From: Aurelia coerulea
Lineage: Eukaryota; Cnidaria; Scyphozoa; Semaeostomeae; Ulmaridae
Assembly (NCBI GenBank): GCA_039566865.1
Contig: CM076948.1
Span: 20,161,001 to 20,225,000 of the forward strand
Direction of reading: 5' to 3'
DNA length: 64,000 bases
In this document: positions 22,967 through 62,374 of the stretch, one piece after another
Layout of the letters: each line of letters starts with the position of its first letter
Position numbering within the stretch: position 1 is the stretch's first letter
Notes under the pieces: model-generated
Databases searched by the model: none
What the model was told of the DNA's origin: nothing
Seen by the model: only the letters and a program-made list of their open reading frames with translations
Position numbers and translations under genes: made by a program

Positions 22967-23941
22967 ATGGCTTGCGTAGTGTTACCAGCAGTATTGCCAA
23001 TGGCAGCATCCGTTATTTACTTGCTAGTTGTAACAAATGCAGTTACAGCAATAACAAACATAATGATAAACTTCTGCTTTATAAAAGGTATATTTAGCAA
23101 AGAACGGCTTATAACCCCGACAAACCTATTCGTGGTGTCTTTGGCTGTCAGTGATTTGCTGGTGGGCCTTATAAGTCAACCTCTAATGTGTGTACATTTA
23201 TTGCTGAACAGATCAACTGTTCGTAGCTGTGCAATTTCCTACATCACTTATTTCGCACTGGGGATATTCTGCGGAGTATCAGGACTGTGTTTACCAGTGA
23301 TAAGCCTTGACAGATACATCAGAATGAAAAAATTGCAATACTACAACAGATATGTTACTAAAAGAAGGGTTGTTGTTGTGATTTTGGCACTATGGGTTAA
23401 TGCATTGGTAATAGCATTTTCGCCTTTATACGGCGTCCCACGCCATGTCTTCTATAGTGTGTTAATAGCATACCTCTGCGTTATATCTATCGTCATGTCA
23501 ATTGCATATGCGTCTGTGATTATCCGATCAACACGATCACTTCTCAGGATTGGACCAATCAGTACACCCCAGGCGCCGACTTCTTCAAGCATGAATTCAG
23601 CAGCAGCAGCAACAACAGCAACGGCTTCAATGGAAGCCTCGGTATCAGATTCCGCACAGAGGATAGCAGCAGATACCTCAAGACAGCTGCGCATAACTAT
23701 TACTGTAGCAATACTCGTTGCGGTGGTGCTTGTATCTTGGATACCGTGCTTCGTCTTTGGTCTTGTATGGTCATTGGGGATTCCTGCATCGGACAAAGAC
23801 AGCACAATAGTTACATTGCGTTATCTTACTATAACAATAGGATTTGCGTCATCGAGTGTCAATCCATTGTTGTACTGTTGGAGGATCAGAGATGTTCGAA
23901 AAGCAGCTTTAGATGTCTTTCGGAACATGTTGACGTGTTAA
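22967..23941 (+). CDS. Class A GPCR, receptor 1 (324 aa, intronless)
   Basis: A rhodopsin-like seven-helix receptor expected in the plasma membrane and coupled to G proteins; ligand unknown. The start MACVVLPAVLP is chosen because it aligns with the starts of the four paralogues; the frame is open further upstream but that part is not conserved. Landmarks: N1.50 at residue 35, D2.50 at 63 (SLAVSD), Cys88, DRY 115-117, SWIP 257-260, NPLLY 299-303, then helix 8 CWRIRDVRKAA and a terminal Cys. Counting back from DRY, position 3.32 is Leu, so it is not a classical amine receptor. The TM4-TM5 loop is very short and lacks Cys. Intracellular loop 3 is short and Ser/Ala/Thr-rich. The closest paralogue is receptor 2. 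There is an ATTAAA ~45 bp after the stop. Confidence 0.92.
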   Translation: MACVVLPAVLPMAASVIYLLVVTNAVTAITNIMINFCFIKGIFSKERLITPTNLFVVSLAVSDLLVGLISQPLMCVHLLLNRSTVRSCAISYITYFALGIFCGVSGLCLPVISLDRYIRMKKLQYYNRYVTKRRVVVVILALWVNALVIAFSPLYGVPRHVFYSVLIAYLCVISIVMSIAYASVIIRSTRSLLRIGPISTPQAPTSSSMNSAAAATTATASMEASVSDSAQRIAADTSRQLRITITVAILVAVVLVSWIPCFVFGLVWSLGIPASDKDSTIVTLRYLTITIGFASSSVNPLLYCWRIRDVRKAALDVFRNMLTC

Positions 23942-24077
23942 GAACCTAATGTCACCTTGTTGTATCACAAAGGAGTCAAATTAGATTAAATCCAGCAATA
24001 GTCAAGGAGGGAAATTTAGCTGGAAAAGGCAACTAATTTTGCCTTCTCTTCGTAATAACTCTCACAGGGTTTCCGTT

Positions 24078-24790
24078 TTACGGTAAATGTTCGATTAAGC
24101 CCCCACCTTTTGAATGAGCTTCCCCCTCGAATAAGCCCCCATCTCATAACTAATTTTTTAGATTAACCCCCCCCCCCAAGAAGCCCCCATGTGGAGTATT
24201 TGAATTGCACAAAAGGCCAAATTTTACATAAATTTTTAGATTCTTTGTCTTGGTATTGTCTCCTTTGAATTGTAGTTAAGAATCAATACCTTTTTGACTT
24301 AGTAGAGGATGAACAAGTCCTCAGCTCCCCCTAGTATCGATGACCTATTCAGGGGGATCCCATTCTCCCAAGAGGACAAAATACATGAATTTATGTGAGT
24401 GTCATCAATTTTAGGAAGGAAAATGTGCTCATTGTTTTCATTGGTTTTGCAGGATTTTTGAAGGGGCTTTCTGCACAAAATCACCCATATCCACGGGAAG
24501 GAATGGCCGATTAAGGCCGGGTAAATTACTGAACCTAATTGAACATATTGGCAATAACACAAGACATTTTTCAATATTATTGCTTTGATATTAATGGAGC
24601 AGTGGCTTTCCAAGCGGGGTTCCTTTTTTCTGACTCACCCAGTAGAATTACAGTATACCATGAGAGATCTACGTTATTATTTGATAAGCCCCCCTTCGAA
24701 TAAGTTCCCCTCAAATAAGCCCCCATTCAGCAATTCATCTTTGACAATAAGCCCCCCCCTAATGAGGCATATTCGAGGATCTACAGTATC
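24078..24790. mobile_element. TIR element with repeated 'aataagccccc' phrases
   Basis: Outer ends tacggtaaatgttcga and its diverged complement (tcgaggatctacagta) are inverted. Both flanks contain several taagccccc phrases. A half-copy of another MITE (24300-24650) sits inside. A related remnant with gggggcttatt phrases occurs near 44140-44200. Superfamily uncertain. Confidence 0.5.
24300..24650. repeat. Half-copy of the 40013-40645 hairpin MITE
   Basis: The sequence matches one arm of the element at 40013-40645 (cctcccaagagg-like centre to the terminus tttttctgactcaccc near 24628-24645) in reverse orientation. The other arm is missing. It is a truncated or single-arm copy nested between the two ends of the 24078-24790 element. 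Confidence 0.65.
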
Positions 24791-24839
24791 CTAGCTGACT
24801 GTTGATCGAGCGTTGAAGTAAATTAACGGACTTAATGTA

Positions 24840-25777
24840 CAGTCGTGGCCAAAAGTTTAAGACCACATTTTTGTCAACAACGTTTCTTGGCCTAACGATA
24901 TGGAACACTACCACTCTGCCTATTTTACTCTCTTGGAGTTCATTTAGATCAACTTTCCATTTAGATTTCACATTTTGGTGCTGATTTTTAAATTTTGGCG
25001 CCATTTTGCTATGACGTCACAATGAAATGTATAGAAAATTTCGGAAATTACAGTGGTTCTGGCGAGAAGGGGTGTGACCCAAAAATTGTGTTACTCAGCT
25101 GGATTTTACATCAATCTATGCACAGTTCATTTCTATGATTTTTTTGCAAAATATCGAAACTCCACGAAGAATATTGCTTCAGGGAAAAAGGTAGTGGAGG
25201 GCCTTATGTCCACAGCTTTGGCCATAAGTTTAAGACCACCCTTGGAAAAGAGTGAAAAACAATCTGTGCTTATGAGGTAAGAGCCTGTGATGTTCGATAA
25301 TTCAAATAATGAAATGATTCTTGAACATTAATTCGAATAACTATGTGATTTGTAACTTGAAACTAAAAATCCAAGGGCTGGTCTTAAACTTATGGCCATA
25401 GCTGTGGACTGAATGCCCTCTACTACCTTTTTCCCAGAAGCAATATTCTTCGTGGAGTTTCGATATTTTGCAAACAAATTATAGAAATGAATTGTGCATA
25501 GATTGATGTAAATTCCACCTGAGTAACACAATTTTTGGGTCACACCCCTTGTGGGCAGAACCAATGTAATTTCCGAGAATTTCTATATATTTCATTGTGA
25601 CGTCATAGCAAAATGGCGCCGAAATTTAAAAAACAACACCAAAATTTGAAATCTACATGGAAAGTTGATCTAAATAAATTCCAAGAGAGTAAAATAGGCA
25701 GAGTGGTAGGGTTCCATATCGTTAGGCCAAGAAACGTTGTTGACAAAAATGTGGTGTTAAACTTTTGGCCACGACTG
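24840..25777. mobile_element. Tc1/mariner-type palindromic MITE
   Basis: The ends CAGTCGTGGCCAAAAGTTTA and the exact inverse at 25777 are flanked by TA. The arms are near-identical over most of the 938 bp. The terminal phrase recurs, inverted again, around the centre (near 25211-25238 and 25374-25405: tggccataagtttaagacca). That gives four terminus-like copies in one element. Ends of this type are common in Tc1/mariner elements. No transposase is present. Confidence 0.85.
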
Positions 25778-26451
25778 TAGCTCTTCTTTCAAACGAATCT
25801 ATAAAATGTTTACAATGGGCTTCCTTGAAACCTGCAAAAGTAAACGATTGCGCTTAGTATATCTTTTCATTGCCAAGAATATGGCTAACATACTACGTTT
25901 TGCAGAATTTTGATCGACTGATTGGTTGCCGAGTAATTACAGGCAGTCTGTCACGCATCTGTTTTGCTGCAATAAAGTTAGGGCTTAACACAACAGATGC
26001 TCATCAGATGCCTTTGTGAATATATGCACTGGAAACAAAGTCAGTGGGATCACCCGCCATTTAATTCCCCTATTCTTTGCATTGTCCTTATCACCCAAGC
26101 AGATGCGTCACAGACTGCCATTAAGATCTTTTTGGAGAGAAAGATTTCTTAAAACAGGCTTTCCGTTTTCATTAGAATGGAAAACAGAGTTTCATTAAAG
26201 GAGCTCTGTCACACAGGTGATTGGTTTAGAGAACAAAGCCTAGACAAAGGAAAGGACCTAGAGCCCAGACTCTTTGAATATTTCGCAGGATAAAAATTCA
26301 GTTCAATTCAAAACAATCTCTTCCCAATTCTTCTCCGTTATTCAATTAGATGTATTGTTCTCTATTGTCTTCAGAACAATTGCCCCCCCCCAATCCGAAG
26401 CTTCTTCCTACGGCCCTGATTCCTGCAATGCAAATCTTTAATCCCCTTATA
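25778..26451. other. Unannotated sequence
   Basis: No gene is seen. A phrase with cacgcatctg...ttagggctta (25950-25990) is shared with about 57670-57735. Both look like old intergenic repeats. Confidence 0.35.
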
Positions 26452-27069
26452 CCGGGTGACCCAGAAAAAAGTGACCCAATGCAATCTGTTATAGAAAAAC
26501 AATTAAGTGGCAGATTGAAATATTTCAAACGTTGTTATGTCACTAAAAGAACAGTCTATAGTACGAGTTTTTTTGCAATTTTTTTGGGCACGGAAAAGTT
26601 CCCGAAATAAGGATTTTGAGGAAAAGCGATGGCTTGAAATTCTCATAAAGTCGTCAAAAACAAGGGATCGATTTGAAGCCATTTCAGATCTTCAAACAAA
26701 CGAGGAGCGTGTTTCATTCGGCCTGAGAATATTTTCGATTACCTAGGGACTATAAAATTCCTCTGAAGACTTCTGATTGGGTTGCCTATTCCCTGGTTGA
26801 AATGAAACACGCTCCTCGTTGTTTTGAAGAGTTGAAATGGCTGTAAATCGATCCCCTGTTTTTGACGACTTTTTGAGGATTTCAGGCATGCTTTTTTCAT
26901 CGAAATCTTTAATTTTGGAAATTTAACATGCCGAAAAAAATTTCGCAAAATACTCGTAGCCTAGGCTAGTCTTTCAGCGACAGAACAACGTTTGAAGCAA
27001 TATCAATCGGCCACTTAATTAATTCTCTGTAACAGATTGTGTTGGGTCACTTTTTTCTGGGTCACCCGG
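26452..27069. mobile_element. TA-flanked hairpin MITE, CCGGGTGACCC ends
   Basis: The 618-bp element has ends CCGGGTGACCCAGAAAAAAG in inverted orientation with TA at both sides. The arms pair along almost the whole length (for example gaggagcgtgtttcatt near 26703 with its complement near 26803). No coding content. Confidence 0.85.
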
Positions 27070-27406
27070 TACAATCTTCAGCCAATTATGATTGAGACAG
27101 ATTGCCTTTAAGGCTAATTTCCAGTCAGCGATATTTTCCAAGCAAGAGGAAATTCTATTGTTTAAGATGGAAAATATTGCTCGAAAGTTGAATAGGCCGT
27201 TACGGTTGAGCGATCTTCTATTGTTTAAAATTCCACCAGCTTGGAACATTCCACTGACTGGAAATCAGCCTTCAAAGCAGCTGTGTTGAGCGGACTAGGG
27301 GCAATCTAAATGTAGCCAATTATATTGTCGATAGATAAAAAACAGGAACATAGGTGGCAACGTACCCTTTTTTACATGCTTCGACCTTGTTGCCATATCT
27401 CAGTCA

Positions 27407-27765
27407 GGCCCGTTATATATGTCGTGCCGCGCCGTGCCGTGCCGAACCATAGGAATTTGAGTTCGACTGAAGTTCGACTTGGAGCGCCTCTGTTTTATAA
27501 GGAAAAACTTTTGCCGTGCCGTGCTGCGTCGAACCACAATGACGCATGCGCATGTTGGGTATGGTTGGGTTGCACATCCACAACAAACAATGGCTTTTGT
27601 CGTTGTGCGCATGTGTGAAAATGCTGCAGCACGGTGGGACTGAAATTTAGTTTTATAAGTCGCACCGGGTCGTCCCAGTCGAGATGCCTTGGGCATATGG
27701 TTCGACGACAATTGTTCGAAATTCACTTGATTCGGCACGGCGCGGCACGACTTATAAAATGGGCC
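27407..27765. mobile_element. GC-rich inverted-repeat element
   Basis: The ends GGCCCGTTATATATGTCGTG and GGCCCATTTTATAAGTCGTG, each followed by CCGCGCCGTGCCG, are inverted. They are flanked by TCA (27404-27406 and 27766-27768). The arms carry a further inner inverted pair around aaccat/ggttcg. It is strikingly GC-rich against the AT-rich background. A 3-bp duplication hints at a Harbinger-type element but is weak evidence. Confidence 0.65.
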
Positions 27766-28202
27766 TCAATTTACTTTAAAGGCATCGAGTCATGCATGAC
27801 AAATAAGCCTGCTTTGCCGTGTATCATGTGACCCATGTGATAAAGATCAATTTGTCACTCCTAAAAAACTAAAAAGACCTGCAGTTGTACAATGCATCTC
27901 ATGTGATCGGTTTCATTTCACAGTATACGCAGTCTACTTAACATGACTCAATGCCTTAAAGTCGCCTTGAAAATGTACGCCTATGTTTCTAATAAAATGT
28001 CATCAAAGTCCAAATTCATCCATGCTGGGTTCGATGGCGAGTTAGTACCAACAAGGGTGAAAATGGTACGCGTACCGCAAGTAACGAATAAAGCTTGTAA
28101 TGTCGAATAGAACTCGCACCTTAGACTTATTTCATTCAGCACAACGTTTTAATTTCCATGTACCGTATAACGTGATGTTGGTTGTACCCAATCGGTTCCA
28201 AA
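27766..28202. other. Unannotated sequence
   Basis: No gene or repeat structure was recognised here. Confidence 0.35.
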
Positions 28203-28575
28203 AATGAATAGATTACACTCATTTTTTATAAGAAACGGTAGGTGCAATTTTTTGGAACTTAAAGAACTGCCCTCCTGATTCAAAGAACGTAAGGAACGTT
28301 TGTTATTTGCACTCAGCAATATTTTGACACTGTGTGGTAGTATAATCTGTTTTGGCATGTTTTACTCCAAATTATGTTATTAATTGTTTTGAGATCTTAC
28401 TAAGTAATTTTGAGCCTTTCTAACAAAAATAGATTAACTCTACACTTGAGTTATTGAAATATAAAAAACATACAAGAAACTTCTTGTAGCAAAAGTTTTT
28501 TCAAATGTAAAAAATACCTACCAGCCTGGACCTTAGTTTCTTATAAAAAGAATGAGTGTATTAGATTCAAAATCC
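28203..28575. repeat. Inverted-repeat element (~370 bp)
   Basis: The ends contain acactcattttttataagaaac (28214-28236) and its near-complement gtttcttataaaaagaatgagtgt (28535-28558). The interior has further matching taagaaac and ttcttgta phrases. It is a likely MITE with no clear target duplication. Confidence 0.5.
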
Positions 28576-28966
28576 GTATGCAATAGTTTCTGTTTGGAAA
28601 CACCAACGCATTAGCCGTTGTTGCAAATCGTATTATCTTTGAAGCGACAATGACATATACCAAGACAGCGAAGAGACATAAATTTTGAGTAAATAGCAGT
28701 TGCCATTCTAGTCCGTCCTTCGTAATTTCATGTTTTGTAGTAATGTTTTGTTAAACTAGTCTATATTATTTATTGCTTATTTATTGTAAGTGCTATTTAT
28801 AGTGGGAACTCAATTACCATGTATCCATTCCCAATGTGAATAACACAGTTTTTAGTTTATCTGTTGATCTTATATATTTATTTTAAACTGTTGAATTGTG
28901 TTACAGTCTTTCACAAACCTTAGGAATGAGGACCGTCTCTATGCTGAAAATTTTCTGTACCATATA

Positions 28967-29565
28967 CCGGGTGCGCCAAAATAAACTATGCACGTTTAGC
29001 AGGCCACAATAAATCTTACACTCGACCGATTTTGATGATTTATGACTTATTCTTTAGCAGAAAGCCTGAGTTAGATACTAAGATTTCTTGCAATTTTTTT
29101 TTTCGATTTTTAGAGCTAGAAGCGAGTTTCGTAAGATTTTAGTTTTCAAAAACACTGAAAACGATCAAAAACATCGATCAAATTTTCTAAATAACCGACA
29201 TGAATGGACAAAGAGAGTACTTGTTCGTGGTGATTTGCGATTCAGAAATCGACCAATTGTAATCTGCTGTACGAGAGTTCGCACTAAACCCCCAAATCCC
29301 CCTGAAACGTGTTCTCTTTGTTCATTCATGTTGAATCTTTTAAAATTTGATCGATGTTTTTTGATCGTTTTTCAATGTTTTCGAGAACGAACATTTTAAG
29401 AAACTCGCTTCTAGCTCTAAAAACTGAAAGCGGGAAATTTGCAAAAAGTCCTAGAATCTAATTCAGGCTTTCTGCTAAAGATTAAGTCATAAAACTTCAA
29501 AATCGGTTCAGTGTACGATTTATTGTGGCCTGCCAAACATGCATGGTTTATTTTGGCGCCACCGG
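28967..29565. mobile_element. TA-flanked hairpin MITE, CCGGGTGCGCC ends
   Basis: The 599-bp element has inverted ends (CCGGGTGCGCCAAAATAAAC / GTTTATTTTGGCGCCACCGG), TA on both sides, and arms that pair across the full length around a centre near 29266. The reading frames inside are by-products of the palindrome. Confidence 0.85.
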
Positions 29566-29978
29566 TATTGTTGTCTTTACTTTCGGCAGCTGCAAATGAT
29601 GTATATTGCGCAGCTATGCTTTTCTGCGAAAATTTTTGATGATGGTTGGGTTGACTCCTTTCTTTGTGTTGGAAATTTCTATCATATGCAACTGCAGATG
29701 GTATTTATGGGTGGTTCAACCATTAGCAAAGAGATTTTTGCAGAGAAGCACAGCTGCGCAATGTACATCATTTGCAGCTGCCAAAAGTAAAGACAACAAA
29801 GCAATATTTGCAAAATTTTTTCTGCTCTCTTTGCATACAATTCGCAATGCTCTCGCGGATTTTGTTAATTTTAGAATTGATCGTCCTGTCATGGAACATC
29901 CATACAAGTGGACAGTAATTGAACTGCGATCTGATGAATGCATCCATCAGTAGTTTTAATTTGACAGGGTCCTTATTA

Positions 29979-30392: not shown

Positions 30393-30399
30393 TTATTAG

Positions 30400-36289: not shown

Positions 36290-36591
36290 GTACAGGACAA
36301 AGAATCTACAAGTTGGGATCATACGAAAAAAAACCCAGCCAAACAGCATTCTTGGTACAACTCGTACCTGCTCAATTCTTCGGAGGCCTTGGACATTGAC
36401 AGCGGCTTTATTTACATTTTGACACCAATAGAATATTGCTTTATCTTTTTACTCAATATTGTTGTTCCTTGAGACTACTGCATCTTGCACAAACTGTTCA
36501 TCTAGCAAGATACAAAACTGTACTTGATGTGCGAATTTGATCAGTACTGATACGACAAACGATCTACAAGTTGGCGTTACACAGGTTTACC
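36290..36591 (+). promoter_or_regulatory. Leader modules of receptor gene 2 (two copies)
   Basis: Copy one begins at about 36296 (caaagaatctacaagttgg), followed by the ttcttcggaggccttggaca phrase. Copy two (36551-36591) has gatctacaagttggcgttac and acaggtttacc and ends ~60 bp before the ATG. The same two phrases in the same order precede receptor genes 3, 4 and 5, so they are part of the duplicated gene unit. Confidence 0.5.
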
Positions 36592-36650
36592 GGTTCGCTT
36601 CTTTTGAAAAGTGGAAATGCTTCAGGAAATACAATAAATAGACCAAGAAT

Positions 36651-37658
36651 ATGGAATGCTCAATCTTACCCGCGATCCGGACTATGGCATCACCTGTTAT
36701 CTACATTTTAGTGATAATAAACGCTGTCACATCAGTAACAAACGTATTGATCAACTTCTGCTTCATAAAAGGTATATTTAGCAAAGAACGGCTAAAAACC
36801 CCTACCAATCTATTCGTGGTGTCTTTGGCTGTCAGTGATTTCCTTGTGGGCCTTATAAGTCAACCTCTAATGTGTGTGCATTTATTGCTGAACAGATCGA
36901 CGATTCGTAGCTGTGCAATTGCCTATCTCACATATTTCGCACTGGGGATATTCTGCGGAGTGTCAGGATTGTTTCTGCCCGTGATAAGCCTTGATAGATT
37001 CATCAGAATGAGGAAATTGCAATACTACACGAAGTATGTCACTAAAAGAAGAGCTGTTATTGTCATTTTGGCGATATGGGCTAATGCAATTGCAATGGCA
37101 TTATCGCCTTTATACAACGTGCCACGTGATTTCTTCTATGGTGTACTACTAGCATACCTCTGCATAATATCCATCATTATGTCATTTTCATATACTTTTG
37201 TAATTACTAAATCGATCAAAGCAATTGGGCCAATGAAGAAACGCCAGAGAACGTCTCTTACAAGCATGAATTCAGTAGGAACAACAACAACCGTAGCACC
37301 AGCAACGATGACCACAACTTCAACAACAGCAACAACCCCAACGAATCACCGTGTTTTAAGATCTGAATGGAGGCCAACAGCAGAATCAATGCAGCTGCGC
37401 ATCACTACCACTGTAGCAATACTTGTTGTTGTGGTGATTGTGTCATGGGTACCGTGCTTCATCGTGGGCATTATATGGGCATCAGACATTCCTGCATCGG
37501 ACGAAAACAGCGTGATCGTTACAATGCGTTACCTTACTATAACGATAGGATTTGCCTCATCGAGTGTCAATCCATTGTTATATTGTTGGAGGATCAGAGA
37601 TGTTCGGAAAGCGGCCTTAGCCACCTTTCGAAGTATCTTTAGGTGCAAAGTATGCTAG
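36651..37658 (+). CDS. Class A GPCR, receptor 2 (335 aa, intronless)
   Basis: A seven-helix rhodopsin-like receptor and the closest paralogue of receptor 1. N1.50 is residue 35, D2.50 is 63, Cys88, SWVP is 265-268, NPLLY is 307-311, helix 8 is CWRIRDVRKAA, and the protein ends in Cys. The DRY motif is DRF (115-117), a tolerated but less common form. Loop 3 (about residues 188-248) has a Thr-rich stretch (TTTSTTATTP). The TM4-TM5 loop SPLYNVPRDFF is short and cysteine-free. Ligand unknown. AATAAA occurs at 37867-37872, ~210 bp after the stop, as a plausible poly(A) signal. Confidence 0.93.
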   Translation: MECSILPAIRTMASPVIYILVIINAVTSVTNVLINFCFIKGIFSKERLKTPTNLFVVSLAVSDFLVGLISQPLMCVHLLLNRSTIRSCAIAYLTYFALGIFCGVSGLFLPVISLDRFIRMRKLQYYTKYVTKRRAVIVILAIWANAIAMALSPLYNVPRDFFYGVLLAYLCIISIIMSFSYTFVITKSIKAIGPMKKRQRTSLTSMNSVGTTTTVAPATMTTTSTTATTPTNHRVLRSEWRPTAESMQLRITTTVAILVVVVIVSWVPCFIVGIIWASDIPASDENSVIVTMRYLTITIGFASSSVNPLLYCWRIRDVRKAALATFRSIFRCKVC

Positions 37659-41599: not shown

Positions 41600-41952
41600 C
41601 ATTGTGCACAACAAAGAATTCACAAATTGGAATCACACGGGGCTACCGACTACGTAGCAACTCGTGTTTACTGAGAGATATATGGTACCAAAGAACAGAA
41701 AAACGGAATTCTTACTGGGTCAATTCTTACCAAATCAATTCTTCAGACGCCTTGGATATTTTCAACGGTTTATTTACGTTTTAACCCCATGAGATGTTGC
41801 TTTATCTGATTCACAATGTTGGCTGCCTTGAAAATACAGAATATTGGTATCTTACGAGAACTATTCATCTAGCAAGATGACATCTTTGTTTGGAGGTGCG
41901 AATTTGATCAATGCTGATATGGGTCTACTAGTTGGTGTTACACAGGGTTATT
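41600..41952 (+). promoter_or_regulatory. Leader modules of receptor gene 3 (two copies)
   Basis: Copy one (about 41609-41800) has cacaaattggaatcacacgg and ggctaccgac, then cttcagacgccttggata. Copy two (41921-41952) has ctagttggtgttacacaggg and ends ~65 bp before the ATG. The order and spacing match the leaders of the other receptor genes. Confidence 0.5.
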
Positions 41953-42016
41953 GACTTTGCATGTTCCTTTTGAAAATTGGAAGAAGTTTTAGAAAAAAAG
42001 GCAACAGATTAAGATC

Positions 42017-43024
42017 ATGGATTGCTTAAACCTACCCGCGGTAGGGCCTGTGACAACGCCAGCTATTTGCTTCTTATTATCTATAAATATTTCCACGGCT
42101 ATTACAGGCATTGTGATCAATTCCTGCTTAATTGCAGGTATTTTCAGCAACAAACAGCTTATAACGCCGACGAATATATTCATAGTATCTTTAGCTGTCA
42201 GTGATTTTCTGATAGGCCTCATATGTCAACCTCTGCTGTGTGCACATTTATTATTGAATAGATCGACCGTTCGTAGCTGTGCAATTGCAGCTTGTACCAT
42301 TTCTTCGTCTTTGATCCTTTGTTGGGTATCGGGCCTCTGTTTACCTGCAATAAGCCTTGATAGATATATTCGCATGAAAAAGCTGCAATTCTACAACAAA
42401 TATGTGACTATAAGACGGGTCGTTATTGTGATTGTTACAGTTTGGATAATCTCAACTGTGCTTGGTCTTCTCCCTCGTTACGGCGTTCCGCGTTTTATCT
42501 CCTACGTTATCTGTACTGCTGGTCTTGGCATCTGTTCTATTGTAATGTCAACTGCATATGCTTCGTTGATTAGATCATTGAGAAGATCACGTGTCATCAC
42601 AGTTGGGCCAATGAGCACAGAGCGGGAATCGACTTCTTCGAGTGTGAATAGTGCAGCAACAACAACAACAGCAGCAGCGATGAGCTCAACGGACCCGGAT
42701 GCCTCGGTATCGAAATATGAACGGAGGCTGGCAGTGGATAACGCAAGACAGCGTCGTATAACTAGTACTGTAGCAATGCTCATCGTCGTTAATATTGTTT
42801 CATGGACGCCATGTTTCATTTCAGGCCTTATATGGTCATTGGACATTCCCGCTAATAACAAAGACAGCACAACGGTTACATTGTATTATATTTCTGTGAC
42901 AATTGGTTTCTCATCATTGGTTGCCAATCCATTTTTGTATTGTTGGAGGATCAAGAATGTTCGAAAGGCAGCCTTTAACATCTTTCGAAATATTGTGACG
43001 CTCAAAGTCTGTCAGCAAAACTAG
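42017..43024 (+). CDS. Class A GPCR, receptor 3 (335 aa, intronless)
   Basis: A seven-helix rhodopsin-like receptor intermediate between receptors 1/2 and 4/5. N1.50 is 35, D2.50 is 63, Cys88, DRY is 115-117, SWTP is 262-265. The TM7 motif is NPFLY (304-308) preceded by LVA where the paralogues have SSV. TM3 differs most (AACTISSSLILCW). The TM4-TM5 loop LPRYGVPRF is short with no Cys. Loop 3 has SSS/TTTT/AAA runs. The C terminus is KVCQQN, three residues beyond the paralogues' final Cys. AATAAA is at 43436-43441. Ligand unknown. Confidence 0.93.
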   Translation: MDCLNLPAVGPVTTPAICFLLSINISTAITGIVINSCLIAGIFSNKQLITPTNIFIVSLAVSDFLIGLICQPLLCAHLLLNRSTVRSCAIAACTISSSLILCWVSGLCLPAISLDRYIRMKKLQFYNKYVTIRRVVIVIVTVWIISTVLGLLPRYGVPRFISYVICTAGLGICSIVMSTAYASLIRSLRRSRVITVGPMSTERESTSSSVNSAATTTTAAAMSSTDPDASVSKYERRLAVDNARQRRITSTVAMLIVVNIVSWTPCFISGLIWSLDIPANNKDSTTVTLYYISVTIGFSSLVANPFLYCWRIKNVRKAAFNIFRNIVTLKVCQQN

Positions 43025-44273: not shown

Positions 44274-44666
44274 CACGGGGGGTTTCTTCCATAGTAAAGG
44301 TACCTGGGGATGTGCCACGAGCAAGGGTATACTTTTTCGGACTTCTAGTCTAGCCAAGGGTATACTTTTTTGCAATTTTGGCCAGCAACGGTCTAGCCAA
44401 GGGTATCATTTTTGACAATATTGGTCTAGCGAACGGTCATGATATCATATTTGGCACAAATTTGACAATATTGGTCGAGGAAATGGTCAAAATTGGTCTA
44501 GCCAAGGGTACCATTTTCGTAAAAATTGGTTCAGACAATGGTCAAATTGGTCTAGCCAAGGGTACCATTTTCGTAAAAATTAGTCTAGCCAACGGTACCC
44601 TTTTGAAGATGCTCGCGGCAGACCCCTACCCAAAATTTGACCAAGAACCCCCCCCCCCCCCCCGTG
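44274..44666. mobile_element. hAT-like MITE with CACGGGGG ends
   Basis: The 393-bp element has ends CACGGGGGG / CCCCCCGTG and a perfect 8-bp duplication GATTCAAT (44266-44273 and 44667-44674). The interior is an array of ggtctagccaagggtacc and attttcgtaaaaattggt phrases. It is homologous to 53591-54026 but in the opposite orientation. No coding content. Confidence 0.85.
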
Positions 44667-51399: not shown

Positions 51400-51985
51400 G
51401 TAGAAAACAAGTATCAACAAGTTGGGGTTACATATTTTGTGATTGCCTTCGCACCTTGTTCTTGTGATAAAAAATAGACACATTTCTCAATGAAGACACA
51501 GATAAGAATTGCATCTTGCTCAATTCTTCAGATGCCTGGAACATTGTCAATGGTTCTATTTAGATTTTAATACAAATGACAGATTGGCTTATCTGATACA
51601 ACCTTGGCTGCTTTGAGACATCAGATATTTGAATGCTGCCGATATTTGTATATTGTACACGACAAAGTTGGGATTGCACAGGGTTACCGAGAACGCAACT
51701 TGCCTTTAAAGAGCCCAACAAATCAGCATTCGTAGCCCAACTCACACTAGCTCAATTCTTCAGAGGCCTTGGACATGGGCAGCTGTTTGTTGACATTTTG
51801 ACACCGATGAGATATTGCTTCATCGCATTCATTATTGTAATTCCTCGAGACTGCTGCTATTTAACAACAATTGTAAAGGTAGCAAAATGCAAAGCAGAAC
51901 TTGGATGTGAAACTTTCAGCATTACTGACAGGAAAAACGATCTACAATTTGGGGTCACACAGGGTTACCAGCTTGGTTCGCTTCT
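51400..51985 (+). promoter_or_regulatory. Leader modules of receptor gene 4 (three copies)
   Basis: Copies begin at about 51417 (caacaagttggggttacat), 51665 (aaagttgggattgcacaggg) and 51946 (caatttggggtcacacaggg), a spacing of 240-285 bp. Copies one and two are followed by a ctcaattcttcagaggccttgg-type phrase. The last copy ends ~60 bp before the ATG. A 1-kb block containing them is shared with receptor gene 5. Function unknown. Confidence 0.55.
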
Positions 51986-52027
51986 TTTGCAAAAAGGAAA
52001 CAGCTTAGGAGACGCAATAAATTTACG

Positions 52028-53323
52028 ATGATCAAGGATTGCATAATTATGCTCCCGGTGGGGCCTATGACAACGCCAGTTATTTACATTCTGGTGATAA
52101 TAAACTTTCTCACGTCTATAAGTAGCAGTGTGATCAATTTCTGCTTTATTGCAGGTATCCTCGGCAGGAAAAAGCTTATAACGCCGACAAATTTAATAGT
52201 AGTATCACTATCTGTCAGTGATTTCCTGGTAGGTGTTCTAAGTCAACCTCTGATGTTTGCACATTTATTGGTGAATCGATGGACTGTTCGCAACTGTGCA
52301 CTTGCATCTATTTCTTTCTATACCGTCAGTTTATTTTGCGGGGTATCGGGCCTCTGTTTACCTGTAATAAGCCTTGACAGATATATACGCATGAAAAAGC
52401 TGCAATACTACAGGAAATATGTCACCATAAAACGTGTCGTTATGGTAATTGTTACAGCGTGGATAAACGCAGCTATGATTGTCCTTATTCCAATGGTCGG
52501 CATTCCGCACTATATCTATTGGATTACTGTCATATCTTCTCTCGGCGCCATTTCCATTGTAATGTCCATGGCATACGCTTCATTAATTACTGGACTGACA
52601 AAGCCCTCTCTCGTCAGAGTTAAGCCTATCAATAGTCTGCGGAAACCGTCTTTGACAACCATGCATTCAGGAACAACCAACTGGCCGTCAATAGCAGAAC
52701 CAACAACTGCTGCACCAGCAACAACAACAAACATAGCACTAACAACAGCAGCAACCACAGAACCAGCAACAGCCACAGCCAGAGAACCAACGACAGTATC
52801 AACAAGCACATTACCAACAACAGTAACAACAGCCACAGTACCTGCAGTAGCAACTACCACAGAACCAACAACAGTAACAACAACCACAGTACCAACAACC
52901 ACAGTACCTGCAGTAGCAACAACCACAGAACCAACAACAGTAACAACAACAACATCACCAGCAGTAGCAGCAATCATAGAACCAACTGTAGCAACGACTA
53001 CTACGGATTATTCGACATTAAAATCTGAAAGAATGTTAGCGAAAGATGAAAGGAGGCAAATGCGCATTACTATTACTGTAGCAATACTGGTTGTGGTGGT
53101 GATTGCATCATGGACGCCGTGTTTCATTTCAGGCCTTTTATGGGCATTGGACGTTCCGGAATCCAACAAAGACAGGAAAATAATTACTATTCATTATTTC
53201 TCTATTATGATTGGTGTTGCATCATCAAGTGTCAATCCATTGTTGTATTGTTGGAGGATCAAAGAAGTTCGAAAGGCAGCCCTAGATGTTTTTCGAAAAA
53301 TCGTGACGTTCAAACTATGCTAG
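52028..53323 (+). CDS. Class A GPCR, receptor 4, long Thr-rich loop 3 (431 aa)
   Basis: A seven-helix receptor and sister of receptor 5. N1.50 is 37, D2.50 is 65, Cys90, DRY is 117-119, SWTP is 361-364, NPLLY is 403-407, and the protein ends in Cys. The notable part is intracellular loop 3 (about 191-345): after a conserved KPSLVRVKPINSLRKPS it runs into ~105 residues of Thr/Ala/Pro/Val repeats (VPAVATTTEPTTVTTTTVPT). At the DNA level these include a 66-bp unit (two copies starting at 52838 and 52904) made of ACA/ACC/GCA triplets. The loop stays in frame, implying selection to keep the receptor open. Ligand unknown; heavy Thr content offers many possible kinase sites (inference). Confidence 0.93.
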   Translation: MIKDCIIMLPVGPMTTPVIYILVIINFLTSISSSVINFCFIAGILGRKKLITPTNLIVVSLSVSDFLVGVLSQPLMFAHLLVNRWTVRNCALASISFYTVSLFCGVSGLCLPVISLDRYIRMKKLQYYRKYVTIKRVVMVIVTAWINAAMIVLIPMVGIPHYIYWITVISSLGAISIVMSMAYASLITGLTKPSLVRVKPINSLRKPSLTTMHSGTTNWPSIAEPTTAAPATTTNIALTTAATTEPATATAREPTTVSTSTLPTTVTTATVPAVATTTEPTTVTTTTVPTTTVPAVATTTEPTTVTTTTSPAVAAIIEPTVATTTTDYSTLKSERMLAKDERRQMRITITVAILVVVVIASWTPCFISGLLWALDVPESNKDRKIITIHYFSIMIGVASSSVNPLLYCWRIKEVRKAALDVFRKIVTFKLC

Positions 53324-53590: not shown

Positions 53591-54026
53591 CACGGGGGGG
53601 GGGAGTTGTTGGCCAAATTTTGGGTAGGGGTCTACTGCGAGCATCTTCAAAAGGGTACCGTTGGCTAGACCAATTTTTACGAAAATGGTACCCTTGGCCA
53701 GATTAATTTTTACGTAAATGGTACCCTTGGCTAGACCAATTTGACCATTCTCTGGACCAATTTTTACGAAAATGGTAACCTTGGCTAGACCAATTTTGAC
53801 CATTTCCTCGACCAATATTGTCAAATTTGTACCAAATATGATTTCATGACCGCTCGTTGGACCAATATTGTCAAAAATGATGCCCTGGGCTAGACCGTTG
53901 CTGGCCAAAATTGCAAAAAGTATACCCTTGGCTAGACTAGAAGTCCGAAAAAGTGAAAAAGTATACCTTTGCTCGCGGCACATCCCCAGGTACCTTTACT
54001 ATGGAAACCCCCCCCCCCTCCCCGTG
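53591..54026. mobile_element. hAT-like MITE 3' of receptor 4
   Basis: The 436-bp element, homologous to 44274-44666 but inverted, has CACGGGGG / CCCCGTG ends. The flanks are CATTAAAT (53583-53590) and TAATAAAT (54027-54034). The same place after receptor 5 (about 62632-62642) reads attattaaatatgct with no insertion, so the ancestral 8-bp target was TATTAAAT. It inserted after the receptor 4/5 duplication, at an ATTAAA hexamer ~260 bp past the stop. Confidence 0.85.
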
Positions 54027-54034
54027 TAATAAAT

Positions 54035-55428: not shown

Positions 55429-55436
55429 TGGGAAAT

Positions 55437-56060: not shown

Positions 56061-56064
56061 TTTT

Positions 56065-57545
56065 AAGGAGGGTTGCCCTTCAGCCGGAGCTGTTTTACAA
56101 GGGGCCCTCCACTTAAAACACTACTTACAATATAAATTTACAAAGGAATAGATTAAATACACTATCACTAAATACAATAAAAACCATAACTATAAAAACC
56201 TAATAACATTTTACAAAGTTTAAGATAAAGGAAAAGAAACACTAACTTCTAAATAGACTGTTTAAAACTATTTAGGGAAGATACCGTTTGATTTCAGCAG
56301 GAAGGTCATTCCATATTTTTGCTCCTCGATAAGAAAAACATTTTTGCCCATTACTTGACTTTTTCTTGGGTAGTCTTAAATCTGTCTCTGTATTACGCAG
56401 GACATACAAAGAGCTCTTTGAGTTTCGGGTGAAGAGGTCACAGAGGTATTTCGGAGCCAGTTCATGCAGGGACATGAAGACCATTGTTTTAGATTCACCA
56501 GCTATAAGTTCTTCAATGGTCTTCCAACCCAGCCTGTCAATAAGTGGTCTACTTGGGGTGTCAAAACTGCTATTGGTTATAATTCTAGCAGCTCGGTTTT
56601 GAAGTTTTTGCAACTGATTCAGCTCAGTCGATCCGGCACAACCCCAAACAGAGCAACAATATCGAAAGTGTGGCTCGACAATACCTGTGTAAAGAGTCTT
56701 CAGAGTTTCCTGCGGTAGGAAAGTTTTGGCATGCTTTAAAAAGCCAATAGCTCTAGAAACTTTAGTAGAAACAGTCTTGATGTGTTCTTTCCAGTTAAGA
56801 GAGTTATCAATCTGCACACCAAGGTATTTAGTTTTTTGGATTACTTTGAGCTCGTTGTCACGAATTTTCAAATCCAAATCCTCAGTTCGATTTTTGAGGA
56901 TGTTATGCTTTTGCTTAGTGGAAACTAACATGGAATTTGTTTTCGCAACATTCAAAGAGAGTTTGTTGCCTTGAAGCCAAGTGTCCAGTTGTTTGAGATC
57001 ATCATTGATGGCGTCATTCAGCACATTTATATCTGAAGACTGGTAGCACAGACTTGTATCATCAGCATACATAGAAACAACTGAATTTTGGACAGCTTGT
57101 GGTAGATCATTGATATAAATAAGGAAGAGAAGGGGACCAAGACATGAGCCTTGGGGCACACCGACATCTATACCCTCGGTTTTTGAACAGACACCATTAA
57201 CCCGACAAAACTGTTTTCGGTTGTATAGGTATGATTTAAACCATGCGAGTTCCCGCTGTTGAACGCCATAGTGCGCCAGTTTTTGGCAAAGAATCTTATG
57301 GTCAACAGTGTCAAATGCTTTTTTTAGATCAATGAAAACTAGGCCCACAAGCTTCCCAAGATCCAGCCCATTGTACCAATCGTCGGTATTTTTAAGTAGG
57401 TGGGTTACAGTAGAATGCAGGCGCAAATAGGCAGATTGGCCAGATGAAAACAGACCGTTATCTTCCATATGCGTATACACCTGATTGGTTACTAGCTTTT
57501 CAAAGAGCCTTGAAAGGACAGGTAAGACTGTTTCGTGTCTTTTCA
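56065..57545 (-). pseudogene. LINE reverse transcriptase, near-intact 3' half
   Basis: A 424-codon minus-strand frame (56272-57546) with no internal stop reads VLPVLSRLFEKLV, VFIDLKKAFDTVDHKIL, VGVPQGSCLGPLLFLIYIND, the catalytic MYADDTSL, KTKYLGVQIDNSLNWKEH, and the C-terminal FSYRGAKIWNDLPAEIK. The first residues (MKRHETV) do not fit the family, so the 5' truncation lies at ~57530. The 3' part has a hairpin (GGAGGG at 56067-56072 with CCCTCC at 56105-56110) near the element end. It is the youngest-looking LINE in the window, with no frame breaks in the reverse transcriptase, but lacks the endonuclease. Confidence 0.9.
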
Positions 57546-58943
57546 TTCCTGTGTCCTGAATTTTTATTGCAATGAAAAGTCAGCCTCGATTCTGTGCTTT
57601 GTAGTAAACAAAAGAGAGAACTGTGTTGCATGAACCAGTCAGGTTCATGACATATGCCCTTTAAGGGCTCTCTTTCACGCATCTGATTGGCGGATGTTTT
57701 TGTGAATCTGTGTGTTTGAAACAAATTAGGGCTTATGTTTATCATTTTTGTACGCTCGTAAAAAGTCAGTAGGATTAGCAGGCATTCAAATCTCTTACTT
57801 TTTGTATTGTAATGGGAGTTTTCAGTTGCCACTAGCAAGTAAAAGCGCTCGCTTCGCTCGCGCTTCAACATTCCTAGCTCCAACGGACAGCTTTTAGACA
57901 ATATCCGACAATGCACCTTGAATGTAACACGCTTTATAGGAGAAGGAAACATCATAATTAATGAGTGTAAACATGTGGGTAGAATGCCGAAACTTCTTGT
58001 TATGCACCAAAAAAATGCTACAGGATAAACTTTAGTGCAGTCTCTATTTAATAGCTGTATGAAAGTGTCCAGTTTCAAATTGTGCAAACCTGTTTGTTTA
58101 GTGTAAATCTATACTTGAAAGGTAGCCCATGTCCATATAAATTGCAAGAAGGAAGGTGAAACGATTCTTGAGCGGCTTGATCATATTCTACGTAGAATAC
58201 CCCTTTGGAATTATATGTTGATAACTTAATCCACAATGCATAGATATTGTCATGCTACGTACATTGATCAAAGCACTTTAATTGCTTATCAGCGTATGAA
58301 CATCAGCAATAGGTCTTGCGCACATAAGTATGAAAGAAATTTGACTGCAGTGAATGGATTTTATCCGTTCTCGTGTCTGGTCACGGAAAGCATAATCGCC
58401 GACGACTTCATAATCTAGGCCCATTTTAGAGGCATCAAAACAACGGTATGGAATAGTCTCATGGTCGGAAAATTATGTCGATTGTCATTGGGAAGATTTG
58501 AGGGAAAGGGTTGGTGGCCTATTGAAAAATGTCCAATTGTTCATACATAAGAAGGAGTGTTAGAGATGGAAATTGAGTAACTGACAGCCTTTCGGAGTTT
58601 ATTGTTCTCATATAGGACAAGAAATCAGGATTTTGATTGGCTAGAAAGTCTGGTCATACATCGAATAGCTTATTGCTTTGATCGTTTTTCGAATGATTGG
58701 TTACATGCCTTATATACCGGTTCTCCCAAAATGATGTAGGCTATTATTGTTTGATTTCTTACATGTCCATAACCAAAGAACCGATTTCCAAAAACTTTGT
58801 TTTACTTGATTACCTAAAGTCTAAATTGTATTTTAAGATGCTGGTCTTTTGCGTTTAATCTGACACAATATGTCAAAAGACTGAAAATACTGAAATTGAT
58901 CTTTCACTGCCCTTGCAGAAAACGGACAGTGGGCAAAAGGCTA
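57546..58943. other. Unannotated sequence
   Basis: A 195-codon minus-strand frame (57500-58087) overlaps the LINE junction and is not recognisable. Composition and a phrase shared with 25950 suggest intergenic repeat. Nothing else was recognised. Confidence 0.4.
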
Positions 58944-59694
58944 CAGGGTGTCCCAAAAAAATTGTTCGACCTTTGATTAAATATAAAAAATAACGACTTA
59001 ATGAATGTGCTCCCTGTTAACATAACCATATTGCTGAGATTTTAAATTAATTTTAGACACCAGAAACTAACAAATCGGCTAAATATTCACGGAATTACGA
59101 GCGTTCGAAGTTCAAGTTTGTGCGAAAGCTGAAACCAGACGCCCCTAAATTGCATATTTAGTGAAAGTAGAATCTCGTTTATCTAAAGCAAATCAAATGG
59201 AATTTGAAAATAACTTTCCATCAACTAGCTTTCTATAACATTGAATCAAGGTTATGGATGCTTGGAGGAATACTGTTCAGCACAATTTAGAATTGCCCCA
59301 TCTCTGATTGATTAAGTTTTCATGCCGTGTTTTAAGTACTCGCAGTCTTAAGTAAATTTTGGCAACGGTTACAAGAATTAGATAACTTTGGAAGTCTTTT
59401 GTGGTGTGCTCTGATATCGAGGAGAGGTAAAACATTGGACAGCCTTCTTTTACCTCGATTTTAGAACGCCTTTTTGGAAAACAAGTCAGTTAGGGGCGTC
59501 TGGTTTCAGCTTTCGCACATAATTGAACTTCAAACGCTTGTAGCTCCGTGAATTCTTAGCGGATTCGCAACATTTTTGTGTCTGAAATTAATTTAAAATC
59601 TGAGGAACAGGGATATGTAACCAGGAGCCTGTACCTTCTATCGTTATTTTTAAACATTTAATCAAGTGTCGAAAAATTTTTCTGAGACACCCCG
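58944..59694. mobile_element. TA-flanked hairpin MITE, CAGGGTGTCCC ends
   Basis: The 751-bp element has ends CAGGGTGTCCCAAAAAAATT / CGGGGTGTCTCAGAAAAATT, TA flanks and imperfect arms around about 59319 (gaaactaacaaatcgg against the diverged inverse near 59560). More diverged than its relative at 50127-50721, hence older. Confidence 0.75.
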
Positions 59695-60609
59695 TATATC
59701 TTTTCCGTGGACCTAAGCAATGAAATCAGCTTGCACTTGATATCAAACAGACACCCTCCCTTGCCACCTGATTCAAAAACAGATAATGCTATCATAGTCA
59801 CAACTATAAATGCTAATTTTGTTACTTTAATGCAGTAGATTTGTAATTAGTGATAATATGGTTTTAGCCAAGGCCCCTTGAGAAGCAGTTATGATGAACG
59901 GACGGGGCTACGTCTCAAGACAATATAAAATAAAATGGAATTGAACGCCACTTTCGACGGTCTTTGTTTGCTTTTGACGGCAAACACCCCCCACTTATAT
60001 CAACTTATATTATTTTTGTCCCCCCCCCCCCTTATATCAAATTCCAGAAGTTTCCAAAGATCCTCCATTCATTGGGCTAAGTAAGTTTGCATATTAATTT
60101 TGAGATGGTTTTTAGATAAAACTGTGACGAATTCATGTATTCAAATCGTAAAATTGTATGTTTAAACCGCAAAATGTTGTGTAAGAGAACTAGAAAGTGT
60201 CCAAAATTAAAAAAGCTCCCGTGGAGCTTTTGTGGTAGCCAATCAAAATAGTGTTATTCAAATAGTTTTTCTGATTGGAACATAGAAATCGTATGCCGAT
60301 TGAGATTTTTGTCAAGTCTAGCATAGAGTAGACTGACTCCAATCTAGCAATTTTTTGTGAAGTAAGGCTAGTATACAGACAATTCTCCAATCTAACATTG
60401 TAAATTGATTAGTTCTGCAGGCTGTATGAATTTCCACTCAATAAGACGTCAAATGCTTATCAAGCTTTGATGATGCAGGAGTTTGCTTCTTTAAAGCACA
60501 TCTGAGCACTGACGATAGAACCACTTGAAGACAGCAGAAGCTTTGCATCGTAAAAGAATTATTCATACAAGAATACTTCATGCCGTTTTGCTAAGTAAAT
60601 TTGATCATT

Positions 60610-61092
60610 CCAACAGCGACAAAGTATCCACAAGTTGGGGTTACATATATTGTGACTCCCTTCGCACCTTGCTCAAGAATCACATCTTGCTCAATTCTTC
60701 AGATGCTTCGAACAGTGGCAATGGTTCTATTTAGATGTCAATACAAATGAAAGATTGGCTTATCTGATACAACCTTGGCTGCTTTGAGACATTAGATATT
60801 TGTATGCTGCATATATTTGTATATTGCACACGAAAAACTTGGGATCGTACATGGTTACCGACCACGTAGCTTGCCTTTAAAGAGCCAAACAAATCAGCAT
60901 TGGTAGCCCAACTCGTACTAGTTCCATGCTCCAGAGGCCTTGGACATTGGCAACGGCTTGATGACATTTGACAGCGATGAAAACTGTAAATGTAGCAAAG
61001 TGCAACACAGAACTTGGATGTGTAACTTTGAGCAATACTGATACGACAAAAAATCTACACGGGGTTACTAACTAGGGTTACACGGGGTTACT
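60610..61092 (+). promoter_or_regulatory. Leader modules of receptor gene 5 (three copies)
   Basis: Copies begin at about 60626 (caagttggggttacatata), 60835 (aacttgggatcgtacatggt) and 61051 (ctacacggggttactaac). The last has an extra 24-bp internal repeat (gggttacacggggttactaac) and ends ~65 bp before the ATG. The block is colinear with 51400-51985. Confidence 0.5.
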
Positions 61093-61159
61093 AACTTGGT
61101 TCGCTATTTTTGAAAGCGGAAAAGGCTTAGGTAGAAAGAGGATGGTTAATAGATAGAGG

Positions 61160-62374
61160 ATGGTTAATGATTGCATAATGCCCCTGGTGGGGCCTATGAC
61201 AACGCCAGTTATTTATATTTTATTGACAATGACCTTTCTCACATCTATAAGTAACAGTTTGATCAATTTCTGCTTTATTGCAGGTATTCTCAGCAAGGAA
61301 AAGCTTAAAACACCTACAAATTTATTCGTAGTATCGCTATCTGCTAGCGACTTCCTAGTAGGCATTCTCGGTCAACCTCTTATGTTTGCACATTTATTGG
61401 TGAATCGATGGACTGTTCGCAATTGTGCACTTGCATCTGCTACTTTCTATACAATAAGTGTATTTACTGGGGCATCGACCATCTGTTTACCTGCAATAAG
61501 CCTTGACAGATATATACGCATGAAAAAGCTGCAATACCACAGGAAATATGTAACAACAAAACGTGTCGTTATGGTAATTGTTGCAGTGTGGAGCAGTGCA
61601 TTTATGATAAACCTTATTCAATTTGTGGGCATTCCCAAGTATATCTACTGGATTGTTGCCGTATCTTCTCTCGGCGTCATTTTAGTTGTAATGTCAGTTG
61701 CATACGCTTCATTAATTATTGAACTGACAAAGCCAAGTCTTGTGAGAGTTAAACCTATCAATAGTCTGCGGAGACCGTCTTGGACAACCATGCATTCAGG
61801 AACAACCAACTGGCCGTCAATAGCAGAACCAACAACTGCTGCACCAGCAACAACAACAAACATAGCACTAACAGGAGCAGCAACCACAGAACCAACAACA
61901 GCAACAGCCAGAAAACCAACGACAGTATCAACAAGCACATTACCTGCAGTAGCAACAAATGCAGAACCAACAATAGTAACAACAAACACAGTACCAACAA
62001 CCACAGTACCTGCAGTAGCAACAAACGCAGAACCAACTGTAGCAACGACTACAACAGATTATTCGACATTAAAATCTGAAAGAATGTTAGCGAAAGATGA
62101 AAGGAGGCAAATGCGCATTACTATTACTGTAGCAATACTGGTTGTGGTGGTGATTGCATCATGGACGCCGTGTTTCATTTCAGGCCTTTTATTTGCATTG
62201 GACCTTCCGGAATCCAACAAAGACGGGAAAATAATTACTATCCATTATTTCTCCATAATGATTGGTGTTGCATCATCATGTGTCAATCCATTGTTGTATT
62301 GTTGGAGAATCAGAGAAGTTCGAAAAGCAGCCCTAGATATTTTTCGAAAGATTGTGACGTTCAAACTATGCTAG
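61160..62374 (+). CDS. Class A GPCR, receptor 5 (404 aa, intronless)
   Basis: A seven-helix receptor, very close to receptor 4 outside loop 3 and TM3-TM5. N1.50 is 36, D2.50 is 64, Cys89, DRY is 116-118, SWTP is 334-337, NPLLY is 376-380, C-terminal Cys. TM3 differs (VFTGASTICLPAIS, no Cys at 3.36), and so does TM4-TM5 (NLIQFVGIPKYIYW), which suggests altered ligand contact after duplication (inference). Loop 3 keeps the Thr/Ala/Pro repeats but is 27 residues shorter overall than in receptor 4. An in-frame duplicate ATG upstream (61142) lies in a repeated gaggatggttaat phrase followed by a stop, so the start at 61160 is preferred. Confidence 0.93.
   Translation: MVNDCIMPLVGPMTTPVIYILLTMTFLTSISNSLINFCFIAGILSKEKLKTPTNLFVVSLSASDFLVGILGQPLMFAHLLVNRWTVRNCALASATFYTISVFTGASTICLPAISLDRYIRMKKLQYHRKYVTTKRVVMVIVAVWSSAFMINLIQFVGIPKYIYWIVAVSSLGVILVVMSVAYASLIIELTKPSLVRVKPINSLRRPSWTTMHSGTTNWPSIAEPTTAAPATTTNIALTGAATTEPTTATARKPTTVSTSTLPAVATNAEPTIVTTNTVPTTTVPAVATNAEPTVATTTTDYSTLKSERMLAKDERRQMRITITVAILVVVVIASWTPCFISGLLFALDLPESNKDGKIITIHYFSIMIGVASSCVNPLLYCWRIREVRKAALDIFRKIVTFKLC

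What the first reader, a model, noticed from the sequence alone, without database searches (positions are those of the whole stretch)
22967..62374. Array of five intronless, same-strand class A receptor genes
Seen: five open frames of 324-431 aa share the same helix motifs, the same 5' leader phrase and related 3' flanks. Sharing of flanks argues for segmental duplication, not independent retrocopying. Inference: a lineage-specific receptor expansion with an unknown common ligand class. All five are open, unlike every transposon frame around them, so selection is likely.
Basis: partly seen in the sequence, partly recalled or inferred. Interest (0 to 1): 0.75.

Follow-up and report, generated by a model that had tools for sequence, protein, structure and literature searches.

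The report
Jellyfish receptor gene array, odd disulfide
The stretch carries five of eleven neighbouring single-exon receptor genes in what is almost certainly a moon jellyfish genome; the gene cluster is an ordinary product of repeated duplication, but these receptors may hold their outer ends together with a differently placed sulphur bridge, a pattern that many other receptors of the same genome share.

Summary
Partly confirmed, and extended. Five intact single-exon class A GPCR genes (g1-g5) lie at the stated places. They belong to an 11-gene array over 121 kb, nine genes on + and two on -. The genome is almost certainly Aurelia: g2 is 99% and g11 100% identical to 'Seg...GoldUCD' models (label recalled as Aurelia). 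Segmental duplication is supported: ten of eleven genes share upstream sequence, g1 does not; g5 is a conversion mosaic. Defined dN/dS ratios are 0.22-0.66. Divergence peaks in TM4-TM5, not TM3, without pocket excess. Ligand and transcription were not testable. Beyond the finding: the family lacks the usual C3.25-ECL2 disulfide, has an ECL2 of about three residues, and keeps an N-terminal Cys plus Cys3.22. That pair recurs in 41 of 60 other receptors sampled from this genome; all 28 scored bilaterian controls have Cys3.25 instead. g9/g10 lack both. The tree-corrected test is underpowered (p about 0.25), and no bond was measured.

The parts
22967..23941 (+). g1: single-exon class A GPCR, 324 aa; no clear upstream homology with the other ten members
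   Evidence: AF2 model pLDDT 88.1, pTM 0.83
36651..37658 (+). g2: single-exon class A GPCR, 335 aa; 99% identical to Seg517.1 (P0001)
42017..43024 (+). g3: single-exon class A GPCR, 335 aa; pairs in the tree with P0129 of another assembly
52028..53323 (+). g4: single-exon class A GPCR, 431 aa, expanded Thr/Pro/Ala-rich ICL3
61160..62374 (+). g5: single-exon class A GPCR, 404 aa, expanded ICL3; mosaic of g7-like 5' part and g4-like 3' part
36331..36650 (+). conserved upstream block of g2 (320 nt tested)
41697..42016 (+). conserved upstream block of g3
51708..52027 (+). conserved upstream block of g4
60840..61159 (+). conserved upstream block of g5
52714..52986 (+). tandem repeats coding the Thr/Pro-rich ICL3 of g4
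   Evidence: alignment
61843..62010 (+). tandem repeats coding the Thr/Pro-rich ICL3 of g5
   Evidence: alignment
61760..62559 (+). approximate tract of g5 that is closest to g4 (ICL3 to about 185 nt past the stop); edges are bin edges, not mapped breakpoints, and one bin inside it (CDS 1000-1215) is a tie

Best explanation
The five frames are part of one 11-gene array of functional, single-exon rhodopsin-family receptors of a scyphozoan jellyfish, almost certainly Aurelia. SHOWN: position, copy number found, open frames, dN/dS below 1, shared upstream blocks in ten of eleven, a g4/g7 mosaic in g5, and a very young g6/g7 duplicate whose joint lies at an LTR retroelement. SHOWN IN SEQUENCE: an intact G-protein-coupling core (R3.50, W6.48xP6.50, NPxxY), no Asp3.32, no Lys7.43, an ECL2 of about 3 residues, and Cys at 3.22 plus an N-terminal Cys where Cys3.25 and an ECL2 Cys would be expected. 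INFERRED: the array grew by unequal exchange and microhomology joins, helped by retroelements; each receptor sits in the membrane with the N-terminus tied by a disulfide to the top of TM3, leaving the pocket without the usual ECL2 lid; a mostly apolar pocket binds a small ligand; paralogues differ in selectivity through TM4/TM5. A chemosensory role is my first choice (about 50%), an endogenous transmitter or peptide second (about 30%). The shared upstream block is a promoter or 5' leader that keeps the copies under common control.
Against: No transcript, surface expression or ligand data. Pocket positions (list recalled) vary less, not more, than other outer-half positions (0.43 against 0.51, permutation p 0.90 for excess), which weakens ligand-driven diversification. 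No test of dN/dS above 1 was made. g1 shares no clear upstream sequence with the rest, and g8/g9 gave no upstream BLAST match with each other. Introns in the 5' untranslated region are not excluded. For the disulfide, see the fourth rival.
Confidence: 0.82

Rival explanations
1. The copies are retrocopies of one processed mRNA, inserted independently, so absence of introns is a trace of retroposition.
For: All are intronless; reverse transcriptase frames are near; g1 lacks shared upstream sequence.
Against: Ten of eleven share upstream DNA and several share 3' flanks; the copies cluster in 121 kb, nine of eleven in one orientation; partners in another assembly lie together on one 3.83 Mb contig; all frames are open with dN/dS below 1 where defined.
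Confidence: 0.05
2. They are aminergic receptors (serotonin or adrenergic), as source annotations say.
For: Best PDB sequence match of g2 is 5-HT2A at E 8e-17; source names '5-hydroxytryptamine receptor 1E', 'Beta-3 adrenergic receptor'.
Against: 0 of 33 family rows with a residue at 3.32 have Asp (28 Leu, 2 Val, 2 Ile, 1 Ser); ECL2 and its Cys are absent.
Confidence: 0.03
3. They are receptors for an endogenous neuropeptide or other transmitter, with paralogues tuned to tissues rather than to ligands.
For: Conserved upstream blocks suggest that control matters; a short ECL2 with open vestibule is found in melanocortin receptors, which bind peptides (PMC10390531 passages); cnidarian peptide GPCR families have expanded (PMC11087051 passages).
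Against: The only named family members are scyphozoan (Rhopilema, and the Seg models; most members are unnamed), whereas the peptide receptor families of that paper are ancestral to cnidarians; the pocket is mostly apolar.
Confidence: 0.3
4. Cys3.22 and the N-terminal Cys do not pair; both are inherited together by descent without bonding.
For: Tree-corrected test: 4 independent pairs, on average 3.1 in the same direction, 0.0 against, 0.9 without difference, median p 0.25. AF2 gives similar N-terminal confidence with and without the Cys pair (first ten residues 84 in g1, 79 in g10). In 109 unnamed non-canonical database receptors the association is weak (13 of 28 against 19 of 81, p 0.03, many of them near-copies). 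Of 11 relatives of L053, one has the N-terminal Cys alone. Six of 20 canonical receptors of this genome have the TM3 Cys at offset 27 rather than 25, so an offset alone does not fix a place in space.
Against: 41 of 42 sampled Aurelia receptors with Cys3.22 have an N-terminal Cys against 6 of 14 with no TM3 Cys at 3.22 or 3.25 (Fisher p 1.7e-5, not corrected for kinship); g9, g10 and P0007 lack both; of 11 relatives of L053, 8 have both, one has Cys3.22 but no N-terminus in its model, one only the N-terminal Cys, one neither.
Confidence: 0.35

Closest known systems
Melanocortin receptors (class A)
   Same: Very short ECL2 (three residues in MC3R/MC5R) and no Cys3.25/Cys45.50 (PMC10390531, passages; PMC3101337, passages).
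   Different: Their replacement bonds are within ECL3 and, in MC3R, N-terminus to ECL3; the family rows here show no ECL3 Cys and have a Cys at 3.22 instead. No sequence evidence of membership.
Mas-related receptors (MRGPR)
   Same: Short ECL2, no Cys3.25/Cys45.50 (PMC9287403, passages).
   Different: MrgD uses Cys4.64-Cys5.33; the family rows have no Cys in the TM4-TM5 joint, apart from one in g3 that lies at the start of TM5.
Adenosine A2A receptor
   Same: Closest solved fold by Foldseek and VIA-align.
   Different: About 20-24% identity in the VIA-align rows; A2A has a canonical ECL2 (recalled); 6.55 is Gly in all 11 genes. Shared fold only.
Lineage-specific cnidarian class A expansions
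   Same: Many-to-many expansions within cnidarian clades (PMC11087051, passages).
   Different: That study filtered out species-specific cnidarian clusters; the passages seen do not mention this family or a Cys pattern.

Membership tests
Class A (rhodopsin) GPCR | PF00001 above curated cut-off | tested here: met
   5 of 5 window genes
Class A (rhodopsin) GPCR | N1.50, D2.50, R3.50, W4.50, W6.48, P6.50, N7.49-P7.50-Y7.53 | tested here: met
   Of the 35 rows of A2, counting those with a residue: N 32/32, D 31/32, R 33/33, W4.50 33/33, W6.48 34/34, P6.50 34/34, N, P and Y of NPxxY 34/34 each
Class A (rhodopsin) GPCR | P5.50 (common, not universal) | tested here: not met
   0 of 34 rows have Pro at the position counted from Y5.58
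Class A (rhodopsin) GPCR | Disulfide Cys3.25-Cys45.50 (common, not universal) | tested here: not met
   0 of 33 rows with a residue have Cys3.25; no Cys in the short ECL2, one flagged in g3 lies at the start of TM5
Aminergic receptors | Asp3.32 | tested here: not met
   0 of 33; the role of Asp3.32 is recalled
Opsins | Lys7.43 | tested here: not met
   0 of 34 rows with a residue; role recalled
Melanocortin receptors | Intra-ECL3 disulfide | tested here: not met
   No Cys in the ECL3 strings of the family rows (P0011 has none to show)
MRGPR | Cys4.64-Cys5.33 | tested here: not met
   No Cys pair in the TM4-TM5 joint
Tandem segmental duplication array | Adjacent copies sharing non-coding flanks | tested here: met
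   ten of 11 genes upstream; not g1, and not the single pair g8/g9 by BLAST
Chemosensory receptor | Expression in sensory cells, response to external compounds | not testable with these tools
   no expression or assay data held

The most novel reading that the evidence does not exclude
A large class A GPCR radiation in jellyfish, of which this array is one local branch, has replaced the common TM3-ECL2 disulfide by an N-terminus-TM3 disulfide (Cys3.22, about one helical turn higher) together with loss of the ECL2 lid. One genome then carries two extracellular architectures side by side: canonical receptors (long Cys-bearing ECL2) and lidless ones.
Probability: 0.45. Interest if true: 0.7.

Novelty: new variant of a known kind. 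Interest (0 to 1): 0.5.

Why it matters
The array gives a compact case of receptor-gene birth: a conversion mosaic and a young duplicate whose joint lies at a retroelement. If the displaced Cys pair is a real bond, class A receptors have another way to fix their outer face, homology models built on the usual ECL2 disulfide would be wrong for a large share of this genome's receptors, and automatic names such as 'serotonin receptor' for them are misleading.

Tried and rejected
Rejected: retrocopying for g2-g11 (shared flanks); aminergic and opsin identity (key residues absent); pocket-focused diversification (not supported). ICL3 expansion was not followed further. A melanocortin or MRGPR structure did not appear among the rows shown of the fold comparisons; that says nothing either way. 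Ten literature searches listed no paper whose title or abstract start named this family or an N-terminus-Cys3.22 bond. What I saw is listings, plus found passages of PMC3101337, PMC9897584, PMC9287403, PMC10390531, PMC11250803 and PMC11087051; no paper was read whole, and most subscription journals are not held. TM4-TM5 ratios above 1 (10 of the 28 pairs printed) were not tested for significance. An earlier, stricter census that counted only offset 28 gave 14 of 20 Aurelia receptors with both Cys, 3 with neither, 3 with the N-terminal Cys alone, and 0 of 48 other database proteins with Cys3.22; the later ones also count offset 29.
Full report
WHAT IS THERE. All five pass Pfam's cut-off for the rhodopsin family. 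The longest ATG frame in 30 Markov-1 windows was 230 aa. tblastn with the five and with 30 homologues found no further copy or fragment in the window.

WHERE IT IS FROM. g2 is 99% identical to a source entry 'Seg517.1 ... GoldUCD', and g11 is identical to P0005, 'Seg3505.3'. I recall these labels as the Aurelia gene models; no call names the species. The window is C6:20161001-20225000 of a 574 Mb assembly in 294 contigs. A chromosome-level A. coerulea genome is reported at 566 Mb (PMC11250803, passages), which is compatible but no proof.

THE ARRAY IS LARGER. A search of the same genome with g2 gives eleven places in C6:20183967-20305015 and then ordinary class A matches from E 5e-16 on. With g5 nothing outside the array passed 1e-20. 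Both searches score only the best candidates (120 of 808; 103 of 926), so a missed distant copy is possible. The adjoining 99 kb were fetched: g6 to g9 are on +, g10 and g11 on -, all open.

RELATIVES. A profile of the five finds 30 proteins at E 1.1e-65 or better and then a drop to 2.2e-22. Named members are Rhopilema esculentum and the Seg models; the rest are unnamed. In a tree of 49 rows, g1, g2, g3 and g11 each group, at starred support, with a protein of one 3.83 Mb contig of another assembly (P0011, P0003, P0129, P0004). If that assembly is another species, as the identities suggest, those duplications are older than the split (inference). g4-g8 form one clade with P0008 and the Seg model P0021.

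HOW IT GREW. Upstream DNA is shared among ten of eleven genes; pairwise BLAST matches add up to between about 190 and 1900 columns in the 1500 nt examined (overlapping matches counted each), except that g8/g9 gave none and g1 gave none with any. By global alignment of 320 nt, g1 is near the random level (43-50%, random mean 43.5%, maximum 47.6%). g2 and g4 are 77% identical there although their synonymous distance is 1.18; the block is thus under constraint and is probably a promoter or 5' leader (inference). g5 is like g7 upstream and through the first 400-600 nt of its frame, then like g4 to about 185 nt past the stop, with a tie in the bin 1000-1215 and a return towards g7 beyond. The best split (p 1e-13) is at nt 456; 0 of 500 shuffles, scanned at every eighth site, reached it. 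Synonymous differences agree weakly (p 0.025). g6 and g7 are 98.5% identical over 2.48 kb, with no difference in the coding columns compared outside ICL3. An element with reverse transcriptase, RNase H and integrase domains and near-identical LTRs (99.2% over 653 nt, 100% over 278) lies between the two copies. The end of g6's frame runs into the LTR at six shared bases, so g6 reads 549 aa with roughly 150 residues from the element. A join by microhomology between an empty and an occupied chromosome would produce this (inference).

SELECTION. Over 55 pairs, every defined dN/dS outside ICL3 lies between 0.22 and 0.66, median 0.37; for the ten window pairs NG86 gives 0.27-0.54. Of the 28 pairs printed by segment (dS below 0.75), dN is highest in TM4-ECL2-TM5 in 26; the exceptions are g5/g8 and the identical g6/g7. 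In 10 of the 28, dN exceeds dS in that segment (for example g5/g6 0.184 against 0.133). No test of excess over 1 was made. TM3 is not a peak. Presumed pocket positions, a list recalled rather than derived, vary less than the rest of the outer half (0.43 against 0.51).

STRUCTURE. AF2 gives g1 pLDDT 88.1 and pTM 0.83, seven helices plus a helix 8, with TM4 ending at 155 and TM5 starting at 159. The nearest solved folds are adenosine A2A receptors. The pocket is mostly apolar; Gln2.58 and His2.64 are kept in all 11 genes and Asn1.39 in ten.

THE CYSTEINES. No family row has Cys3.25 (0 of 33), and the short ECL2 has none. Cys3.22 is present in 32 of 33 rows; the exception, P0007, also lacks the N-terminal Cys. 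Of 25 rows with a residue at position 3, 24 have Cys. g9 and g10 lack both; P0009 and P0010, near them in the tree, keep both. In 60 other class A frames of the genome, 42 have Cys at 3.22 and 41 of these an N-terminal Cys; 4 have Cys3.25; 14 have neither, 6 of them with an N-terminal Cys. L025, scored without ECL2 Cys because the script could not place the loop, has one by eye. Where it could be placed (36 of the 42), the W4.50-Y5.58 spacing is 36-41. Controls: 28 of 28 scored named bilaterian receptors (of 34 marked) have Cys3.25 and an ECL2 Cys, spacing 52-76. Twenty frames sampled from the genome's PF00001 list have the TM3 Cys at offset 25 (13), 27 (6) or 32 (1) from R3.50, with a Cys in all 16 placed ECL2 loops; one of the 20 (L082) has Cys at both 25 and 28. 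So two architectures coexist. In a second lidless family, 8 of 11 relatives of L053 have both Cys, one has Cys3.22 without an N-terminus in its model, one the N-terminal Cys alone, one neither. Against the bond: in 109 unnamed non-canonical database proteins, where the Cys sits one residue higher in 28, the association is weak; the offset-27 controls show that TM3 length varies, so the label 3.22 rests on counting from R3.50; and a tree-corrected test has only 4 independent pairs, on a quick tree that did not leave out the trait columns.

VERDICT. The array is a good new member of a known kind. The displaced Cys pair is the part that may be new, and is unproven.

Noticed in passing
window 1143-4418: Long nested inverted repeats, 409 and 712 nt arms at 98-99% complementarity, plus an inner 195-nt pair at 100%.
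   Followed up: no
window 65-997 and 5977-6922: Near-identical direct repeats (98-99%) about 5.9 kb apart, flanking the inverted-repeat block.
   Followed up: no
L009-L010, C6:20229830-20241474: g6/g7 young duplicate with an LTR retroelement at the joint; g6 carries a retroelement-derived C-terminal tail.
   Followed up: partly
G000 C11:4.26-4.64 Mb, C5:23.89-23.92 Mb, C4:9.17-9.27 Mb, C2:10.98-12.25 Mb: Other dense class A receptor clusters in the same genome.
   Followed up: no
P0125 (650 aa): A family member of another assembly whose ICL3 holds a long array of near-identical repeats, a separate ICL3 expansion from that of g4/g5.
   Followed up: no
L020-L099: Two extracellular architectures among class A receptors of one genome: short ECL2 with Cys3.22, and long Cys-bearing ECL2 with the TM3 Cys at offset 25 or 27.
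   Followed up: partly
window 44367-44604 and 53682-53919: Inverted copies at 94% of a short dispersed repeat, one of them within the 3' flank of g4.
   Followed up: no
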